Origin: Bacteroidota bacterium
GTDB lineage: Bacteria > Bacteroidota > Bacteroidia > Chitinophagales > Chitinophagaceae
Direction: 5' to 3'
DNA length: 47,104 bases
NCBI GenBank assembly: GCA_018268135.1
Contig: JAFDXD010000048.1
Location: 1-47,104, forward strand
Shown here: positions 29,862 to 36,993 of the stretch, piece after piece
Layout: each line of letters begins with the position of its first letter
Position numbering within the stretch: position 1 is the first letter of the stretch
The notes under the pieces: generated by a model
The model's input: only the letters and a program-made list of their open reading frames with translations
The model's database searches: none
Told to the model about the DNA's origin: nothing
Translations under genes and position numbers: made by a program

Positions 29862-30206
29862 CTAAAATCCTCTGTCGTTTCTAATTTGTATAGTGGCATT
29901 ATGCAATAATTCGTTTACAGGTATTTGACAAGCCAGGCGTATATTATTATCGGTAATGCCTGTTTTTTTGATAGTTGACCATTCATTTCTGTCAAATGCC
30001 GGAATAGTATGTTCTGATTTCAAAATTTCAATAAGGCAGGTGGCGCATCTTCCCATTCCGCCACATTCGCCAAAATTTTGTACATATATTTTGTCAAAAA
30101 TCAGCATCATCAGGTTTCTGTACTCCGCAGTATAAGTAGTTAGTAAATGTTCCTCTTCATCATACAATACTTTAATGATTATCGGGCTTTTTTCGGTTAC
30201 AGTCAT
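29862..30206 (-). CDS. [2Fe-2S] ferredoxin
   Basis: A 114-residue ferredoxin. Cys48, Cys54, Cys57 and Cys93 fit C-x5-C-x2-C...C of the plant/adrenodoxin-type fold. It is a soluble electron carrier. It is last in the nitric-oxide/low-oxygen gene run, 7 bp after the hemerythrin gene. It might feed electrons to the globin, to Ric or to a hemerythrin; the sequence does not say which. Confidence 0.87.
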   Translation of the reverse strand: MTVTEKSPIIIKVLYDEEEHLLTTYTAEYRNLMMLIFDKIYVQNFGECGGMGRCATCLIEILKSEHTIPAFDRNEWSTIKKTGITDNNIRLACQIPVNELLHNATIQIRNDRGF

Positions 30207-30213
30207 TGCAAAA

Positions 30214-30687
30214 TTATTTTTTTAGCCAAAATTCATCTGCAAATTCGTCTTTAATTTCTTTATGCACTGAAGTTAATTGCCGGCCAATTGAGGAGAGTGC
30301 TTCTGCACTTAAAATACTTTCGAGGCGTGGAAATAAATCTCTTTCTTCAAATCGTATATGAGCATCTACCATATCTGCCAAATGATTGTATTGCTCTTCG
30401 GAAACATTTTTACCGGTATGTATTAAATCAATAAGGGCCGATATTTCGGCATGTTGCTGCTGCGCCTGCACTACCAGAGGATCGTTGATGCCTTTAAAAA
30501 GGATGTTTTCTTCTTCTTTGAAATGAGTATGCAAATGGCTGTTCCAAAAATAAAGGATGTAATCGTGTATGCGTTGTAGTGAGGCTTTTTGTTTTAAGCC
30601 ATTTCTTATTTTCCAGCAAAATAATAATGCAAAATGATGGTCTTTTGACAGCAGAACAATATTTTCATTTCTTTTAATTGGCATCAT
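30214..30687 (-). CDS. Hemerythrin domain-containing protein
   Basis: A 157-residue protein forming a four-helix bundle with the hemerythrin iron-ligand pattern: HHFALLFCWK near the start, HTHFKEEENILF, QQHAEIS and HIRFEERDLFPRLE. It should bind a di-iron centre and O2 or NO. Within the cluster it sits after the DUF488 gene (7 bp gap) and before the ferredoxin. Two adjacent ATG codons exist; the first is used. Confidence 0.85.
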   Translation of the reverse strand: MMPIKRNENIVLLSKDHHFALLFCWKIRNGLKQKASLQRIHDYILYFWNSHLHTHFKEEENILFKGINDPLVVQAQQQHAEISALIDLIHTGKNVSEEQYNHLADMVDAHIRFEERDLFPRLESILSAEALSSIGRQLTSVHKEIKDEFADEFWLKK

Positions 30688-30694
30688 TAAGAAT

Positions 30695-31042
30695 TTACAT
30701 TTTAATAGATAAGATTTCTTCTAACAGCGCCGCATTATTATGCACTTCATCTTTAGCAGCATATACAAGTGTTACAACCTTTTTTTCTTTTATTATTTTC
30801 ACAAGCTCCGGCAAGGCCACCGAATCTTTTAATTCTTCCCTGTATCTTTTTTTAAACTCCTCCCATTTGCCGGGGTCGTGTGCAAACCATTTTCTAAGCT
30901 GTGCAGAAGGAGCTATTTCTTTAAGCCAGCAATCAATATGAGCCTTATCTTTTGTAATCCCTCTTGGCCATAGCCGGTCTACCAGTACCCGGTAACCATC
31001 CGAAGTATTATATGCCTGGTATGCCCGTTTTGTATGCAACAT
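30695..31042 (-). CDS. DUF488 family protein
   Basis: A 115-residue protein with the DUF488 hallmarks VLVDRLWPRGITKDKA, WLKEIAPSAQLRKWFAHDP and the C-terminal VVTLVYAAKDEVHNNA. No Cys pair or cofactor motif is obvious. The function is unknown, though such genes often lie beside hemerythrin, Ric or globin genes in my memory. The stop codon is 7 bp from the hemerythrin ATG, and its own ATG is 5 bp after the ric stop. Confidence 0.85.
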   Translation of the reverse strand: MLHTKRAYQAYNTSDGYRVLVDRLWPRGITKDKAHIDCWLKEIAPSAQLRKWFAHDPGKWEEFKKRYREELKDSVALPELVKIIKEKKVVTLVYAAKDEVHNNAALLEEILSIKM

Positions 31043-31047
31043 TTCTT

Positions 31048-31773
31048 TTAATTTTTCAGAGCTTTCTCCATTTCTATTGCTTTTGGAAACAATATATTAT
31101 TTTCAAGATGTATGTGCAGGAGAAGGTCATTTTCAAATTCCTGCAATAACAAATAGGTTATCCCGTAAGTATGACAGGCATCATCCGGCGCCGTATAGTC
31201 TTTACTCAGTTCTTTAATTTTTCTAAATCTCCCTCCTTCGGCTTCATGCTCATGCATCATATTGCTAATAGGCATTGCTACAGTACCAAATGCAGTTTTA
31301 GCCAATACATTCTTATCAGAATTTTCATCGCTAAGATTAATAATATATGGAAACAATACTTTTTCTTCTTTTTCCATGTGAACCATAAATTCCATTGAGC
31401 TTTGAGCAAATAATTTTTGTATTTCAAAAAGCTCAGGATGACGGCTGCCATGCACTTTACAAAGCTTGGCAAGATACTCTTGCAGTACCGGTACCTGCGC
31501 TCTTACATAGCGGTGGTGTTTTTTTTCAATATAATTTATCAGCAGGTCGGGCGGCCACGATTGAAAATCGCTTGTAATTTGTGTACATTGTCTGGTTATT
31601 TCTTTGAGCTCAGATATCAGTTCTTCTTTCTTTATTTTTTGCGAAGCGCATGCTTCCTCTATATTTCTGTTGCCATTGCAGCAAAAATCAATTCCATAGT
31701 TTTTAAAAACAGTGGCTGTACGATAGTCTTCTGCTACAATTTCGCCAATCATTTTATCTTTTAAATTAATCAT
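31048..31773 (-). CDS. ric: Di-iron iron-sulfur cluster repair protein Ric (ScdA/YtfE)
   Basis: A 241-residue protein. The N-terminal ScdA domain (residues 3-60) has FCCNGNRN with Cys31-Cys32 and Cys42. The hemerythrin-like domain carries His ligands at KKHHRYV, HGSRHPE, HMEKEEKVLFP, MMHEHEAEGG and LLLHIHLENNILFP. The family repairs Fe-S clusters damaged by NO or oxidants and is classically NO-induced. Its start overlaps the membrane-protein gene upstream by 8 nt, showing tight translational coupling. Confidence 0.93.
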   Translation of the reverse strand: MINLKDKMIGEIVAEDYRTATVFKNYGIDFCCNGNRNIEEACASQKIKKEELISELKEITRQCTQITSDFQSWPPDLLINYIEKKHHRYVRAQVPVLQEYLAKLCKVHGSRHPELFEIQKLFAQSSMEFMVHMEKEEKVLFPYIINLSDENSDKNVLAKTAFGTVAMPISNMMHEHEAEGGRFRKIKELSKDYTAPDDACHTYGITYLLLQEFENDLLLHIHLENNILFPKAIEMEKALKN

Positions 31774-32215
31774 ATTGATATTTTTTTAAAAAAATAATAC
31801 CGGTGATAATAAGGCAGGCAACTTTGAGTACTTCGGCCACTACAAAATAAATATGTAGGCCAGATGATGGTACGGGCTGATGAGTAATGTAAAGCAATGC
31901 CCTTGCATCTAATGCAGGTAATAGCCAAACAGTTTGAATGATTAAAATAATGAATGCTGAAAAATAAAAAGTGGTATTGGCAAACCGATTTGATTTTTTT
32001 CCGAAAAATAATGCCGCCAGTATAACAAGGGCAAAAAACCATTCTACTTTATTTAAAGCGCCAAAAACAAGTTGGCCAATACCCAGCCCGATTGACAGGG
32101 TTACACCCGGGGCCTGAAATTTTATCCAGGATTCTAAAAAGCTTATTGCTCCAACAAAACCCAGCCACAAAAAAACACTTGCTATTACAATATTATTTGA
32201 TCTCTTCTCCGTCAC
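31766..32215 (-). CDS. Four-helix membrane protein in the NO-stress cluster, function unknown
   Basis: A 149-residue protein with four hydrophobic segments (about 9-28, 58-76, 80-102 and 122-142). I do not recognise a characterised family. A GTG start overlaps the globin stop in the arrangement GTGA (4 nt), and the 3' end overlaps ric by 8 nt, so it is made together with both. No haem-ligand Cys pair is seen; scattered His residues do not form a pattern I trust. Confidence 0.65.
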   Translation of the reverse strand: MTEKRSNNIVIASVFLWLGFVGAISFLESWIKFQAPGVTLSIGLGIGQLVFGALNKVEWFFALVILAALFFGKKSNRFANTTFYFSAFIILIIQTVWLLPALDARALLYITHQPVPSSGLHIYFVVAEVLKVACLIITGIIFLKKYQYD

Positions 32216-32607
32216 AATAATGGTGTTGCAGAATTATTTCTATAGTATGTTAATTTAGATAAAAACATGATGGCCATTTTATCGCCACGCATTTTGGCTT
32301 CATCAGCTTTTATCCCTTTGAAATGTGCATTAATAGTAGCATGCCACAATGAAAGCCAGGTATCAAAATGAATTTGATCAATGGGCAAATCTGCATGTTT
32401 CAAAAAAGGGCTGCCATAGTAAGTATGATCATCTAATAATACAGTTTGCCAAAAACGGTACATTTTTTCTAAATGCTGTGGCCATCTATCCTGAATTACC
32501 TCATTAAAAATCGGGCCAAGTAATGCGTTTTCTCTCACCTTGCCGTAAAATTCATCTACCATAAGTTTTATATCATCCAGTGTTTGTATATCCTTTAGTG
32601 TAGTCAT
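32212..32607 (-). CDS. Group III truncated hemoglobin
   Basis: A 131-residue small globin. The pattern DDIKLMVDEFYGKV, the FW-x-x-V-L segment (YRFWQTVLLDDHTYYG) and HADLPIDQIHFDTWLSLWHATI fit group III truncated globins (trHbP). His in FLKHADLPI is the likely proximal ligand. Such globins bind O2 or NO and are linked to microaerobic or nitrosative stress. It lies between a small membrane-anchored protein and a membrane protein, fully inside the operon. Confidence 0.9.
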   Translation of the reverse strand: MTTLKDIQTLDDIKLMVDEFYGKVRENALLGPIFNEVIQDRWPQHLEKMYRFWQTVLLDDHTYYGSPFLKHADLPIDQIHFDTWLSLWHATINAHFKGIKADEAKMRGDKMAIMFLSKLTYYRNNSATPLL

Positions 32608-32611
32608 AGCA

Positions 32612-33019
32612 TCATTGTCTTATTAAAAAATATCTGAGCAAATAAAACATGGCCCATCCGGCAAATCCTATTATCAATATCCATACCCATGCAGGAATAC
32701 TTTGGGGAGTTTCGCTGCCTTCTATTAAAAAGGTTTTTTGATCGCCTTTGCCATAAGCATTTATCATCAATGGCAATACCCCGTCCACTACTGCATTTTC
32801 TTTAATACCTTCTACAGCTATAGCCGGCCCATTGCGTACTATAAATGGAATGATGCGAATACCTTCTTTGCCGGTAGGATCCTTGCTTACTATTTTTAGT
32901 GTATGCTCACCATCCACTAATTTTCTTGTATCCAACTCAAAGCTTACCGGCGATAATACTTCGGCAATAGGTTTAGTATCATCATCCAAAAAAATATAAA
33001 TGTTGCTTTTATCTTGCAT
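32612..33019 (-). CDS. Membrane-anchored protein with extracytoplasmic-type beta domain, function unknown
   Basis: A 135-residue protein. Residues 1-95 look like a beta-sandwich (SPVSFELDTRKLVDGEHTLKI, RIIPFIVRNGPAI); a C-terminal membrane helix spans about 110-130 (IPAWVWILIIGFAGWAMFYLL). There is no signal peptide, so the domain orientation is uncertain. The ATG at 33019 is used; an in-frame TTG at 33028 is less likely. It starts one base after the stop of the preceding small protein. The location just after a cytochrome gene suggests a role in the oxidase complex (inference). Confidence 0.65.
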   Translation of the reverse strand: MQDKSNIYIFLDDDTKPIAEVLSPVSFELDTRKLVDGEHTLKIVSKDPTGKEGIRIIPFIVRNGPAIAVEGIKENAVVDGVLPLMINAYGKGDQKTFLIEGSETPQSIPAWVWILIIGFAGWAMFYLLRYFLIRQ

Positions 33020-33020
33020 A

Positions 33021-33281
33021 TTATTCAAAATTTAAAATAAAATGTTTGATATGTGTATTTGATTTTTCTCCTGGCTTTACCAGCCATTTAACAGAATAAA
33101 ATAAGGTAACCAATACTATGGCAACCATGCTCCACACTATCACCATATCCCACTGGCTTTGCGGCCCGGTGCCATGCGAAATGCCCTGCAATAATTTGGG
33201 TTGTTGTTTTTCGCAAAGGGGGCATGCCAGCCCAATATAACGGGCAAGTATAAATGCAATTAATGCTATTAATTTTTTCAT
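33021..33281 (-). CDS. Small membrane protein with CPLC motif, function unknown
   Basis: An 86-residue protein with an N-terminal hydrophobic segment (residues 3-18), CPLCEKQQPK at 20-29, and a second membrane helix at about 46-66. The CxxC pair right after the first hydrophobic segment could bind metal or haem, or be redox-active, on the outer face. It lies 10 bp after the cytochrome c gene on the same strand. I do not know a characterised homologue. A copper-insertion or assembly role for the nearby oxidase is possible but unproven. Confidence 0.65.
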   Translation of the reverse strand: MKKLIALIAFILARYIGLACPLCEKQQPKLLQGISHGTGPQSQWDMVIVWSMVAIVLVTLFYSVKWLVKPGEKSNTHIKHFILNFE

Positions 33282-33291
33282 GATCCTTATT

Positions 33292-34287
33292 TTAGTTTTG
33301 TGGTTTTAGTTTTACCACATCTAATATTTTTTTAATTTCTTCAGGCGTTACTTTCTTGCCATTGTTGCCCCAGCTACTTCTTTCATAATTAATAATGGCA
33401 GCTACTTCGTTTTCTGTAAAATTTGCATTGGTACCTACCGGCGGCATTACGCCATACTCGGCTCTTGCATCGTAGCCATGCATGATGATATCTACATACA
33501 ACTCTTCATTATCGCCCAGTACTACAGGGCTGCCTTTTAACGGAGGGAATGCACCTGGCAAGCCTTCGCCATTTGCCTGGTGGCAGCTTTGGCAATTGGC
33601 CGTAAACAAGGCTTTACCATCCAGCTCTGCCGGGCCTCCTTGCTTTTTGACTTCCTGTTTATACAAAAATGCCGGTACAGGTGTGCCATCCGGCAGCTTG
33701 GTTTGTTTTAAAGACTGCAGGTAAGCCAGCAAATACATCACATTTTTGGTGGCTACAATTTTGCCTTCCTGGCCTCCCATAAATTCTTTTGGCACATTTA
33801 CTACCACATCAGTTTTGGAGGGTTGTTTTTTCAAAATAAATAGCCAGGGATATGCCGGCATTATTGATTCTTTCACTACTGCCCGTGGATTATAAAGATG
33901 CACCAGGTTCCAGTCTTTACTTGGCTGGCGTGTACCTATATCCGTTAGGTCGGGGCCGGTACGCTCTGTACCCATTAGTGTAGCAGTATTTCTAAAAAAA
34001 TCTGTACGATGTATGTCTGCATAATCGGCAGCTATGCTTGGCCTGCTGCCCCATACTTTATCCATATCTACATTGCGTACCTGTTGTGTATGGCAGCCTA
34101 CGCATCCATTGGCCACATATATTGCTTTACCTTTTACAGCATCGGGGCTTAGCTCCGCAGCATTGGGCAAGGGGGCATTGTTTTTTTGATTGCTTAAGGC
34201 CGGCAATATGGCTACCATCACGGTGAGCGATGCAAAAAATAAAAATGCCGTTCCGAAAAGTTTTTTATGGTTATCAAATAGTTCCAT
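33292..34287 (-). CDS. CcoO-like / cytochrome c fusion subunit of a cbb3-like oxidase
   Basis: A 331-residue dihaem protein. One N-terminal membrane anchor (about 11-31) leads into a CcoO (FixO)-like domain with CVGCH at 62-66, followed by RTGPDLTDIG and a possible Met ligand in SIMPAYPW. A second class I cytochrome c domain holds CQSCH (232-236) with Met in YGVMPP. This combines the roles of CcoO and part of CcoP in one chain. It lies 32 bp after the oxidase subunit I gene and should pass electrons to it. Confidence 0.85.
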   Translation of the reverse strand: MELFDNHKKLFGTAFLFFASLTVMVAILPALSNQKNNAPLPNAAELSPDAVKGKAIYVANGCVGCHTQQVRNVDMDKVWGSRPSIAADYADIHRTDFFRNTATLMGTERTGPDLTDIGTRQPSKDWNLVHLYNPRAVVKESIMPAYPWLFILKKQPSKTDVVVNVPKEFMGGQEGKIVATKNVMYLLAYLQSLKQTKLPDGTPVPAFLYKQEVKKQGGPAELDGKALFTANCQSCHQANGEGLPGAFPPLKGSPVVLGDNEELYVDIIMHGYDARAEYGVMPPVGTNANFTENEVAAIINYERSSWGNNGKKVTPEEIKKILDVVKLKPQN

Positions 34288-34319
34288 GATAAAAAATGAA
34301 TTTATACTAATATCAATAT

Positions 34320-36455
34320 TTATGCTTCTTCCAATTTTTGAATAGCAAGTTCTTTTACATCCACTACTGTTCTTTTTGCAATCATCTTATACATATTGTA
34401 TGCAAAAAACACGTGTGATAGCCACATCAGGCTTCCTCCTATTGCTCTCCACAACCAGTAAGGCGCCATTAGGGTAACTCCATCAATAAAAGGTTTGCCT
34501 TGCAGCCATAGCAATCCTTTGAGGGTGCTGCCATACATCAGTGGGATGGTATAAAACAGTAATCCAATTAATGCCATCCAAAAATGTGCTCCAATGGTAA
34601 TTTGTGGCGCTTCTTTGCCTGTAAGCCTTGGTACAATGGCATAAATAGATGCCCATACAAAAAAGCAGATAATGCCATACATGGTAAGGTGAGAGTGCGC
34701 CACAGTAAAATCTGTAAAATGCCAGATAAGGTTTGTACTCCTAAAAGCTTCTGCCGTACCCTGCATAGAGCCGGTAAAATAAAAGATGATTCCTACTAAA
34801 AAGAAAGGAAGAGTATAACTGTCTTTTATTTTGTACCATGCGCCTTTAAATGTCATAATAAAATTAGTAGTGCCTGCAATTACCGGTATTATCATACCTA
34901 CACTACCAACAATGGCAATAGTTTGCAACCACCATGGGATGGAGCTAAATACAAAATGGTGTGTACCAATAAGAGTATAAAAAAGTATTTGTGTCCAAAA
35001 AGCAAGTACACCAAGGCTGTATGAATAAATTGGCTTATTTAGCTGCTGTGGCAAAAAGTAATAAACAATACCCAGGGTAAACAGCATAAACCACATACCT
35101 ACTCCCTGGTGCATATAGTAGCCTTGTATTATGGTTTCACCCAGCCCATTTTGCCATATAGGCACGTAGGCAACAAATGAAATTACAAGTGCAAAAATGA
35201 TAGATGCAACAATGTACCAGTTGGCAATATAAATTTCCCGGGTGGTACGCTTGGCAATGGTTTTTAAAAAATTATTCAGGGTTAATATTAACCCAATGCC
35301 AAATAATAACATTACCGGCCAAATGTATTCCCTGTATTCGCCGCCGCCATTATTAATGCCGGCCATAAGGCAAAGCGTACCTAATACTACGGCTGCATTA
35401 ATCAGCCACAATGCCCACCAGCCGCTTTTAATACTTGATAAGCTTGTGTTACTAACTCTTGGCACTACATAATACCCCAGCCCAAGCATTCCTAATGACG
35501 CCCAGCCCCAAAAAACCGCATTGGTATGTACCGGCCTCAACCTGCCAAAACTTAGCCAGCTCAAATGGTCTGCATCGGGCGCTACAAACTTAATACCCAG
35601 GTATTCGCCAATTGTAGTACCAAATAATAACCAAAATGTAGCACAGATAAAATACCACAGTATCAACTTAGATAATGCAGGGTCAATATCCGGCCGCTTT
35701 ATCGCTTTCTTTTTTAATGCTACTACCGGCAGCCCAAACTCACTATTTATTTTAATTAAGCCTTTATCATCTACGGCTTTTTCCTGCCCCGACAACTCCT
35801 TGTTGCTAAGCCTGTAATCCAATGCCGTCTGCCTTGATTTCAACACTGCATTTATTTCATCTTCGGGCAAGGTTTTTAAATAAGCAGCCAGCTCTGCAGC
35901 TTCTTCTGCACTTTTTTTATTTTTGTACTGTGTCAATACATTTTTTGCTTTTATTGAAAGTAGTATTACTGCTACCAGTATGGGAATGAGCAATAATACA
36001 ATGGTGATGATGACTCCTGCTTCGCTCAAAAATGAATTAGTATCGGCACCTGTAGCATCCTGCGCCAATGCAGGGCTCACTGCAGTAAAAGTTGCAATCG
36101 CCAGTAATATAAAAGGCAAGAGTAATTTTGCAGCGCCTGAATTTTTTCTTTTCCAGGTAGTTATTGCTTCAATTTGCCTACTGGAAAAATTACTGAGATA
36201 ATTTGCAAATTTTTCCTTCTTATTTAATCTATGCTCCTCCTTATTGCCACGGGTTATTTGCCCTACTTTGTACTTTAAAATGAGCGCCATTACTACACAA
36301 CTCATTACCATCAAAAACAATATTAGCAGCCAGGCGCCTACAGAATGGAAAGAAAAAGTAGATGGTGTATTATCTTCTTGTGCAAATAATAATTGAGGAA
36401 AAACAGTATTTAATAATAAGAAAACTAAAACAATGATTACCCTTTTCTTTTTCAT
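34320..36455 (-). CDS. cbb3-type haem-copper oxidase subunit I with duplicated N-terminal extension
   Basis: A 711-residue protein, about 230 residues longer than usual CcoN. The oxidase core begins near 258: low-spin haem His310 (RPVHTNAVFWGW), CuB ligands His449 (YYMHQGVG) and His499-His500 (GTHHF), Tyr477/479 in PIYSYS (place of the cbb3 active-site Tyr) and haem ligands His587/His589 (TVAHSHLTMYG). Residues 1-230 hold two similar units: hydrophobic segment ending in Ala-Gln, polar stretch, membrane helix, then a charged helical region. CcoN usually has FEG before the haem-ligand helix; here it reads MQG (565-566 region). Probably an O2 reductase, perhaps also active with NO. Confidence 0.85.
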   Translation of the reverse strand: MKKKRVIIVLVFLLLNTVFPQLLFAQEDNTPSTFSFHSVGAWLLILFLMVMSCVVMALILKYKVGQITRGNKEEHRLNKKEKFANYLSNFSSRQIEAITTWKRKNSGAAKLLLPFILLAIATFTAVSPALAQDATGADTNSFLSEAGVIITIVLLLIPILVAVILLSIKAKNVLTQYKNKKSAEEAAELAAYLKTLPEDEINAVLKSRQTALDYRLSNKELSGQEKAVDDKGLIKINSEFGLPVVALKKKAIKRPDIDPALSKLILWYFICATFWLLFGTTIGEYLGIKFVAPDADHLSWLSFGRLRPVHTNAVFWGWASLGMLGLGYYVVPRVSNTSLSSIKSGWWALWLINAAVVLGTLCLMAGINNGGGEYREYIWPVMLLFGIGLILTLNNFLKTIAKRTTREIYIANWYIVASIIFALVISFVAYVPIWQNGLGETIIQGYYMHQGVGMWFMLFTLGIVYYFLPQQLNKPIYSYSLGVLAFWTQILFYTLIGTHHFVFSSIPWWLQTIAIVGSVGMIIPVIAGTTNFIMTFKGAWYKIKDSYTLPFFLVGIIFYFTGSMQGTAEAFRSTNLIWHFTDFTVAHSHLTMYGIICFFVWASIYAIVPRLTGKEAPQITIGAHFWMALIGLLFYTIPLMYGSTLKGLLWLQGKPFIDGVTLMAPYWLWRAIGGSLMWLSHVFFAYNMYKMIAKRTVVDVKELAIQKLEEA

Positions 36456-36473
36456 AACTTAGATATTTGTACA

Positions 36474-36493
36474 TTTTAACTTTTAAGTTAAAA
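36474..36493. promoter_or_regulatory. Perfect palindrome before the oxidase gene, candidate operator
   Basis: TTTTAACTT (36474-36482) and AAGTTAAAA (36485-36493) are exact inverted repeats across two bases. It lies between the Rrf2 stop codon and the oxidase ATG (36455). It could be bound by the Rrf2 protein encoded next door. It could also be a short AT-rich coincidence. Confidence 0.5.
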
Positions 36494-36495
36494 AA

Positions 36496-36930
36496 TTATT
36501 TTCTCTTTAAAAATATTATTTCATTTTCAAGCGCTACACTTAACTCCGTAAGTTTTGCATTTGCCAGCATGTCGTGTGTTTGTTGACGAATTTTTTTGAA
36601 TTCATGATGTACAGGGCATGGGTGAGATTCTGAACAATGTTTTAACCCGAGGCAACAGGCAGAAAAAAAACTATCTCCATCTACTGATCTTACTACATCA
36701 AGCAGTGAACGATTTTTTGACATCTCATCCAGATAAAAGCCGCCATTGGGCCCTTTTAAAGATTGCACCAGCCTTTTGCGGCTTAAGTCTTGTAAAATTT
36801 TGGCTATAAAATGCTCCGGGGAGTCTATACCGGCAGCAATTTGTTTTATACCTGCTTTTTGCCCTGCCCTCGAAGTATGAGCTATATATATCATGGCTCT
36901 TATTGCATATTCGCAGGTTTTGGAAAACAT
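36496..36930 (-). CDS. Rrf2-family Fe-S transcriptional regulator
   Basis: A 144-residue regulator. The winged helix (residues 1-70) has CEYAIRAMIYIA, IAAGIDSPEHFIAKILQDL and the wing LKGPNGGFYL. Cys93, Cys99 and Cys105 are spaced C-x5-C-x5-C as in IscR and NsrR, which hold an Fe-S cluster; an extra Cys92 is adjacent. Being next to an oxidase, Ric and a globin, an NO- or redox-sensing role like NsrR is likely. The start is ATG 36930; a TTG at 36957 lies in the promoter box region. The -7 box ends 16 bp before the ATG. Confidence 0.88.
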   Translation of the reverse strand: MFSKTCEYAIRAMIYIAHTSRAGQKAGIKQIAAGIDSPEHFIAKILQDLSRKRLVQSLKGPNGGFYLDEMSKNRSLLDVVRSVDGDSFFSACCLGLKHCSESHPCPVHHEFKKIRQQTHDMLANAKLTELSVALENEIIFLKRK

Positions 36931-36946: not shown

Positions 36947-36954
36947 CAAAGATA
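36947..36954 (-). promoter_or_regulatory. -7 promoter box TATCTTTG before the Rrf2 gene
   Basis: Exact TAnnTTTG match on the minus strand, 16 bp before the ATG at 36930. No TTG at 19 nt upstream. Confidence 0.55.
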
Positions 36955-36967
36955 CAAGGATTAAAAT

Positions 36968-36993
36968 AATAAAAGATAAAAAAGTCTTTTATT
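36968..36993. promoter_or_regulatory. Inverted repeat upstream of the Rrf2 gene, candidate autoregulatory site
   Basis: AATAAAAGA (36968-36976) and TCTTTTATT (36985-36993) are exact inverted repeats across 8 bp. They lie just upstream of the -7 box and touch the stop codon of the preceding gene. The position suits control of the Rrf2 promoter. Confidence 0.45.

What the first reader, a model, noticed from the sequence alone, without database searches (positions are those of the whole stretch)
29862..36930. Compact eleven-gene NO/low-oxygen operon under an Rrf2 regulator
Eleven minus-strand genes with gaps from -8 to about 40 bp: Rrf2 (C-x5-C-x5-C), cbb3-like oxidase subunit I, CcoO-like/cytochrome c fusion, two small membrane-anchored proteins, group III globin, membrane protein, Ric, DUF488, hemerythrin and ferredoxin. 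Seen directly: order, overlaps and motifs. Known: Ric, truncated globins and NsrR-type Rrf2 proteins are linked to NO stress. Inferred: the oxidase here is an NO-tolerant or NO-consuming terminal enzyme, with the unnamed genes as its partners.
Basis: partly seen in the sequence, partly recalled or inferred. Interest (0 to 1): 0.7.

Follow-up and report, generated by a model that had tools for sequence, protein, structure and literature searches.

The report
NO-regulated divergent cbb3 oxidase operon
This bacterium carries a little-known branch of the low-oxygen breathing enzyme cytochrome cbb3, packaged with nitric-oxide defence genes and sitting behind a DNA switch that, in its relatives, also stands near genes that make and destroy nitric oxide, so it is probably the enzyme that keeps respiration going when nitric oxide is around.

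Summary
The eleven-gene minus-strand cluster is real (29862-36930). Its constant core is four genes, not eleven: coxN (divergent cbb3 subunit I), coxOP (FixO plus cytochrome c), and the two 'unnamed' small proteins sm86 and sm138. This core is intact in 73 of 73 close relatives with enough sequence to judge. sm138 occurs in 24 of 147 family genomes, always with coxN. In other classes of the phylum sm138 still carries a c-type cytochrome, so it is a CcoP-like subunit that has lost its haem here; sm86 sits where CcoQ would. Globin, Ric, hemerythrin, DUF488 and ferredoxin are frequent but variable. A palindrome (AATAAAAGA-N8-TCTTTTATT) lies upstream of rrf2. Most other exact copies in relatives lie beside rrf2, ric, norCB-like or nosZ genes, some with nirK or hmp following, so the regulator works like NsrR without meeting the NsrR model. 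The active site is oxygen-reductase type: haem/CuB ligands and the helix-VII tyrosine are present, the NO-reductase glutamates absent. coxN associates with nirK (18/44 versus 18/131 genomes) but does not replace NO reductases. Best reading: an NO-induced respiratory oxidase, most likely NO-tolerant. NO consumption is possible but untested.

The parts
36968..36993 (.). Perfect palindromic operator AATAAAAGA-N8-TCTTTTATT, overlapping the expected -33 region
   Evidence: 0 mismatches; mean 0.02 in shuffles of the window at up to 2 mismatches; within 1 kb upstream of coxN in 58/79 relatives at up to 2 mismatches, 0/79 for the reversed pattern
36947..36954 (-). TAnnTTTG-type -7 promoter box (TATCTTTG); motif recalled as the Bacteroidota promoter
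   Evidence: sequence
36496..36930 (-). rrf2: Rrf2 regulator, conserved C-x6-C-x5-C; works like NsrR
36460..36483 (-). Second, degenerate half-palindromic site between rrf2 and coxN (consensus TAAAAGATAAAAAGGTATTAATATCT in relatives; 17 of 24 positions in the window, a score that five other places of the window reach or exceed)
34320..36455 (-). coxN: divergent C-family haem-copper oxidase subunit I with an N-terminal extension (tandemly duplicated signal-like TM + TM unit)
33292..34287 (-). coxOP: CcoO/FixO domain fused to a C-terminal cytochrome c (two CxxCH)
33021..33281 (-). sm86: small membrane subunit with conserved CxxC and His; CcoQ-like position
32612..33019 (-). sm138: beta-domain + C-terminal TM; CcoP-like subunit that lost its cytochrome c domain
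32212..32607 (-). Truncated haemoglobin
Evidence: PF01152, 22.7 bits, cut-off 21; 54/80 loci.
31766..32215 (-). mem149: membrane protein of unknown family
   Evidence: no match; 18/80 loci
31048..31773 (-). Ric/YtfE di-iron protein
   Evidence: TIGR03652 244.4 bits, cut-off 204.7
30695..31042 (-). DUF488, inactive-N3 subclade
30214..30687 (-). Hemerythrin-domain protein
29862..30206 (-). 2Fe-2S ferredoxin-like protein
   Evidence: NqrF model, weak

Best explanation
The locus encodes a distinct, ancient branch of the cbb3 (C-family) terminal oxidase made of four proteins in the old N-O-Q-P order: coxN, coxOP (CcoO + cytochrome c), sm86 (CcoQ-like) and sm138 (CcoP-like, haem lost in this lineage). 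An Rrf2 repressor binds the palindrome overlapping its own promoter; NO damage to its Fe-S cluster would relieve repression and switch on the oxidase together with NO-handling proteins (globin, Ric, hemerythrin). The oxidase would keep electrons flowing to O2 at low oxygen while NO poisons the canonical aa3-type and cbb3 enzymes, perhaps also reducing some NO. Shown: gene core, its deep conservation, operator, operator neighbours in relatives, active-site residues. Inferred: that this Rrf2 binds the operator, NO sensing, co-transcription, NO tolerance.
For: Core intact in 73/73 judged loci; sm138 tied to coxN in 24/24 genomes. The same gene order recurs in other classes of the phylum. 24 exact operator sites in 147 genomes (about 0.17 expected by base composition): 8 at coxN operons; 13 of the other 16 directly beside rrf2, ric, norCB-like or nosZ genes. 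In some loci where rrf2 is absent or divergent, the palindrome lies just upstream of coxN (L095, L112). Haem and CuB ligands and the helix-VII Tyr are conserved in 81/81 proteins; NO-reductase glutamates absent (motif from PMC3084760). coxN is enriched in nirK genomes, 18/44 versus 18/131, p=3.7e-4 (all 18 confirmed by sequence). The own genome has two other bacterial HCO genes, aa3-like and canonical CcoNO, and nosZ. No Hmp passes its cut-off there.
Against: No expression, binding or enzyme data. With one mismatch allowed, the operator count is 65 against 31 for the reversed control, so many weak sites are chance. Two weaker sites, both in one genome without coxN, stand in front of Fe-S-type genes by my reading (L166 cysteine-desulfurase-like, L167 CDGSH-like). 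The own genome has only this one operator copy at up to 1 mismatch and no nirK over the cut-off, so its NO would have to come from outside or from other reactions. rrf2 is not directly upstream in 21 of 79 loci, and the palindrome is missing at up to 2 mismatches in 21 of 79. NO tolerance cannot be read from sequence.
Confidence: 0.6

Rival explanations
1. The complex is mainly an NO reductase (or a bifunctional O2/NO reductase): an unrecognised NO sink of the Bacteroidota.
For: It shares its operator with NO-reductase genes and is enriched in nirK genomes. In the 147-genome sample 5 of 7 nirK+coxN genomes had no cNOR-like or qNOR hit, though two of those five carry another HCO with the Tyr replaced by Gln. 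P. stutzeri cbb3 reduces NO (passages of PMC8780969), and PMC12816887 raises the same idea for a SAR11 nirK-cbb3 region (passages read). Polar residues invariant in ten canonical CcoN are replaced: S to G482, H to A485, E to Q565, in 81/81.
Against: The tyrosine that NO reductases lack is kept 81/81 and the NO-reductase glutamates are missing. Among 44 nirK genomes, NO reductases are as common with coxN as without: motif-bearing ones in 8/18 versus 8/26 (p=0.52), and with the Tyr-to-Gln and Tyr-to-Asn HCO classes added 11/18 versus 16/26 (p=1).
Confidence: 0.25
2. An ordinary low-oxygen cbb3 isoenzyme under an iron-sulphur or redox-sensing Rrf2 regulator; the NO genes are travelling companions.
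For: cbb3 enzymes are typically high-affinity oxidases (established knowledge); the Rrf2 scores higher against the SUF-regulator, RirA and IscR models than against NsrR (61.1, 57.7, 53.2 and 43.2 bits; none over its cut-off). Two of the eleven weaker sites fetched stand before Fe-S-type genes by my reading (L166, L167).
Against: The exact copies of the operator lie mostly at NO/N-oxide genes. Canonical CcoNO already exists in the genome. tHb, Ric or hemerythrin genes lie within 9 kb in 61/80 loci.
Confidence: 0.13
3. Chance neighbourhood without joint function.
For: The accessory genes vary between relatives.
Against: 73/73 intact cores, shared operator, tight overlaps.
Confidence: 0.02

Closest known systems
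Canonical cbb3 oxidase CcoNO-Q-P (own genome contig C61; 3mk7, 9g6b)
   Same: Haem/CuB ligands, helix-VII Tyr, FixO subunit, N-O-Q-P gene order
   Different: coxN scores 210-217 bits to the CcoN of 3mk7 and 9g6b, while the own canonical CcoN scores 581-585; separate 100/100 clade; CcoN polar residues S, H and E replaced; no di-haem CcoP; extra N-terminal domain; NO-type operator
NsrR regulons (Rodionov 2005, PMC1274295, passages read)
   Same: Rrf2 repressor with palindromic operators beside hmp and dnrN/ric-type NO genes
   Different: Different motif (gATGyAT-N5-ATrCATc there); the NsrR passages name gamma- and beta-proteobacteria, Bacillus and Streptomyces; here C-x6-C-x5-C, and the NsrR model is not met
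P. aeruginosa ccoN4Q4 under MpaR (PMC10790758, passages read)
   Same: Poison-induced cbb3 isoform with its regulator encoded just upstream and a palindromic site
   Different: Cyanide rather than NO, a GntR-family regulator, an orphan subunit rather than a full operon
SAR11 nirK-cbb3 region (PMC12816887, passages read)
   Same: cbb3 genes linked to NO-producing nirK where NO reductase is absent
   Different: Described there as a canonical cco operon, with a Crp/Fnr regulator in front

Membership tests
C-family haem-copper oxidase (cbb3) | Haem and CuB His ligands and helix-VII Tyr (Tyr-II) | tested here: met
   81/81 proteins; Tyr-II as definition from PMC3084760
C-family haem-copper oxidase (cbb3) | FixO/CcoO mono-haem subunit encoded with it | tested here: met
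Canonical CcoN equivalog (TIGR00780) | Score over the curated cut-off | tested here: not met
   250.4 bits against 583.15
Canonical cbb3 | Di-haem CcoP subunit | tested here: not met
   sm138 has no CxxCH (0/78); one extra haem c sits on coxOP (two CxxCH in 79/80); deep relatives' sm138 has one CxxCH (5/5)
Canonical cbb3 | C-type K-channel residues | tested here: inconclusive
   Tyr559 and Asn531 kept; S, H and E replaced in 81/81; which of these form the channel is recalled
NO reductase (cNOR/qNOR) | Motifs H-X-Arom-X-E and H-H-X-Arom-Arom-X17-E; no Tyr | tested here: not met
   HQGVG at His449 and Tyr493 present; motifs from PMC3084760
NsrR (NF008240) | Score over the curated cut-off | tested here: not met
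   43.2 bits against 182
NsrR | Operators beside NO-detoxification genes | tested here: met
   rrf2-hmp, ric, tHb, norCB-like, qNOR, nirK and nosZ loci carry the operator
NsrR | Fe-S cluster that reacts with NO | not testable with these tools
   Only the three Cys are seen

The most novel reading that the evidence does not exclude
A phylum-wide, so far unnamed branch of cbb3-type enzymes is dedicated to nitric oxide: an NO-induced O2/NO reductase with its own CcoQ- and CcoP-like subunits, serving as an overlooked NO sink (N2O source) in Bacteroidota, including nosZ-bearing species like this one in which no cNOR- or qNOR-type gene was found.
Probability: 0.22. Interest if true: 0.8.

Novelty: new variant of a known kind. 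Interest (0 to 1): 0.57.

Why it matters
Gene catalogues would file this enzyme as 'cbb3-type oxidase', hiding a distinct enzyme in an NO regulon. The operator found here makes the Bacteroidota NO regulon directly searchable, and the two small subunits become testable parts of a respiratory complex.

Tried and rejected
coxN as a stand-in for missing NO reductases: not borne out by the 44 nirK genomes. My first impression from 147 genomes (5 of 7) rested on cNOR-like and qNOR searches alone; G028 and G123 carry another HCO with Tyr replaced by Gln. Classes first assigned from score and length were then checked on fetched sequence for every genome counted as coxN-bearing or as NO-reductase-bearing, except that G284's HYWVE-type protein is inferred from its likeness to G198's (G284 is in the broad class anyway) and G006 rests. 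Matches below about 80 bits were not listed and not classified.

The structure model of coxN was too poor to use (mean pLDDT 60.7). The sm138 model is a low-confidence beta-domain plus helix (69.6), and its best PDB matches are FNIII-like and not significant (E 0.13).

sm86 as a CcoP or coxN N-terminus relative: no support. CcoP N-terminus versus coxN N-terminus: hhalign probability 95.7 at 8% identity, treated as suggestive only because signal-like TM segments inflate such scores.

The first tree used a wrong ORF for L218; rebuilt. Literature searches listed no paper that I recognised as describing this operon; two searches returned no paper at all. Recalled work of Hemp, Ducluzeau and Murali on HCO/NOR diversity was not read.

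Full report
OBSERVATION. Eleven minus-strand ORFs lie at 29862-36930. Between neighbours from rrf2 down to ferredoxin the gaps are 40, 32, 10, 1, 4, -4, -8, 5, 7 and 7 bp. The genome (3.27 Mb, 166 contigs) also holds an aa3-like COX1 and a canonical fused CcoNO, the latter followed by CcoQ- and CcoP-like ORFs (names by my reading), so this is its third bacterial terminal oxidase locus.

WHAT IS CONSERVED. A pattern scan of one genome per species (84,980 species) found 335 relatives of coxN; the tool kept the best 80, and all 80 were mapped. coxN, coxOP, sm86 and sm138 are present in 80, 79, 79 and 77 of 80. In the 73 loci with more than 2.3 kb of sequence downstream of coxN the four-gene core is complete in 73. 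rrf2 is somewhere in 65 of 80 loci (directly upstream in 58 of 79), globin 54, ferredoxin 32, Ric 31, hemerythrin 28, mem149 18, DUF488 15. These 80 are the closest relatives, so the figures describe them and not all 335. In a sample of 147 family genomes, 25 have an orthologue (55-100% identity), followed by a sharp drop to canonical CcoN at about 29-33%. sm138 is in 24 genomes, all 24 with coxN; the one coxN genome without it is 60% complete.

DEEP RELATIVES AND SUBUNIT IDENTITY. In 326 genomes of the phylum, 10 hold coxN at E below 1e-90, six of them outside the window's class. Eight of these ten loci were fetched: coxN and coxOP in 8 of 8, sm138 by profile in 7, sm86 by profile in 6. The six outside the class have coxN ORFs of 436-478 aa, without the N-terminal extension. 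In five loci (L210-L214) sm138 continues after its membrane helix into a c-type cytochrome with one CxxCH, 49-66% identical to the cytochrome at the end of the neighbouring coxOP. Because c-type haem is attached outside the cytoplasm (established knowledge), the N-terminal beta domain should lie inside. So sm138 is a CcoP-like subunit whose haem domain was lost in the window's lineage (0 of 78 have CxxCH), and sm86 occupies the CcoQ place; for sm86 this is position and size only. In sm86 a CxxC (80 of 80) and a following His are conserved in the window's lineage, while the CxxC is absent in L210-L212 and L214. The coxN N-terminus is a tandem duplication of a signal-like helix plus membrane helix (hhalign E 5e-12, on the 57 sequences that the cut rule accepted). 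Canonical CcoP in the same genome begins with a similar doubled arrangement, but the sequence link is weak.

ENZYME TYPE. coxN belongs to the C family: His310, His449, His499/500, His587, His589 and Tyr493 are present in 81 of 81 (ligand roles by alignment to CcoN). The NO-reductase motifs described in PMC3084760 are absent. coxN forms its own 100/100 clade on a long branch, apart from canonical CcoN and from divergent proteobacterial CcoNs (some deep joins are marked unsure there). Residues invariant in ten canonical CcoN but replaced in all 81 coxN include Ser to Gly482, His to Ala485 and Glu to Gln565. I recall the first two as proton-channel residues. Four divergent proteobacterial forms share the Gln and have Gly in place of that His.

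REGULATION. Upstream of rrf2 lies AATAAAAGA-N8-TCTTTTATT (36968-36993), next to a -7 box of the kind I recall for Bacteroidota. At up to 2 mismatches it is found within 1 kb upstream of coxN in 58 of 79 loci, the reversed control in 0 of 79. In 147 family genomes there are 24 exact copies (my count from the table), against about 0.17 expected from base composition. Eight lie at coxN operons. The other 16 were all fetched: seven are directly beside rrf2 (L163, L171-L175, L179; nirK follows in L172 and L175, globin and ric in L171 and L174, hmp in L173, nosZ on the other side in L179), three in front of ric operons (L161, L162, L176), two beside norCB-like genes (L178, L181) and one upstream of nosZ (L180). 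The remaining three are L177 (the DUF2249-12TM part of the same operon type, without ric), L159 (DUF488, with ric and hemerythrin about 1.6 kb away) and L164 (an unnamed secreted protein).

With one mismatch there are 65 copies against 31 for the reversed control (my sums), so single weak sites mean little. I fetched eleven such weaker sites: near qNOR (L182, L184), rrf2-hmp (L168), rrf2-ric (L169), norB-like genes (L165, L170), a ric operon (L160), globin-ric (L183), an operon with a Tyr-to-Asn HCO (L185; 62% identical to L205), and two before Fe-S-type genes by my reading (L166, L167), which count against an NO-only reading. Identities were checked on representatives: NirK, Sec-dependent NosZ and NO-inducible flavohaemoprotein over their cut-offs, qNOR by PF22085; the L180 protein is 73.7% identical to the L179 NosZ. 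The eight Rrf2 proteins beside such genes that I examined share C-x6-C-x5-C with the coxN ones. The regulator therefore works like NsrR, although it misses the NsrR model by far (43.2 bits against 182). A second, half-conserved site fills the short gap between rrf2 and coxN in relatives; in the window it is degenerate.

NO LINK AND FUNCTION. nirK passes its cut-off in 16 of 147 and 44 of 364 family genomes. coxN is in 18 of the 44 nirK genomes but in 18 of the 131 genomes of the smaller sample without nirK (Fisher p=3.7e-4; 7/16 versus 18/131 within the smaller sample, p=0.007). Shared descent is not corrected for; all 18 were confirmed by sequence. Against a simple replacement role, motif-bearing NO reductases occur in 8/18 nirK genomes with coxN and 8/26 without (p=0.52); adding the HCO classes with Tyr replaced by Gln or Asn gives 11/18 and 16/26 (p=1). 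The own genome has nosZ (931.8 bits, cut-off 625), no nirK over the cut-off, no cNOR-like or qNOR hit and no Hmp over the cut-off. The reading that fits best is an NO-induced, probably NO-tolerant oxidase. NO reduction is open, given that P. stutzeri cbb3 reduces NO (PMC8780969, passages) and that a bifunctional cbb3 was proposed for SAR11 (PMC12816887, passages).

NOVELTY. The kind (cbb3 oxidase; NO-responsive Rrf2 regulon) is known; the branch, its sm138-type subunit and the Bacteroidota operator are not described in the passages that I read. Only open-access text was searched (ten searches, see Tried and rejected), so absence from print is not claimed.

Noticed in passing
G000:C67 (38,415 bases; L004-L008, L224, L228): COX1 is broken into seven separated pieces, several with in-frame stop codons, mostly TGA: probably a eukaryotic mitochondrial contig in this assembly, i.e. 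contamination.
   Followed up: partly
L170:4167-5495, L181:2154-3488, L165:3497-4807, L191:2321-3658: A family of about 440 aa NorB-like proteins beside a small cytochrome c in the same NO regulon, with Gly in place of the helix-VI CuB His and Met in place of one haem His in all four examined: an unusual haem-copper homologue of unknown chemistry.
   Followed up: partly
L198, L199, L208, L209, L254-L259: Haem-copper proteins of about 555-590 aa with GHSSQQ where oxygen reductases have a Tyr, in ten of the 44 nirK genomes; perhaps a further NO-reductase class.
   Followed up: partly
L204, L205, L206, L247, L248, L260, L261; also L185:1239-2777: Haem-copper proteins of about 485-512 aa with Asn at the usual Tyr position, in seven of the 44 nirK genomes; in L185 the operator stands in front of such an operon, at one mismatch.
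   Followed up: partly
L160, L161, L162, L176, L177; also L064, L072, L106: A second operon type: ric (another ORF in L177), a DUF1858/DUF2249 protein, a 12-TM protein with faint CcoN similarity (20 bits) and, in several, a MIP18-like protein; in the first five the operator stands in front.
   Followed up: partly
G000:C43:1889-3700: nosZ (Sec-dependent model) in the window's genome without nirK or a cNOR/qNOR-type gene; the contig ends about 60 bases upstream, so its operator cannot be seen.
   Followed up: partly
L099, L115, L190: In L099 and L115 the first part of coxN is a separate ORF of 108 aa just upstream of a shorter coxN; L190 has a similar 110-aa ORF (likeness by eye).
   Followed up: no
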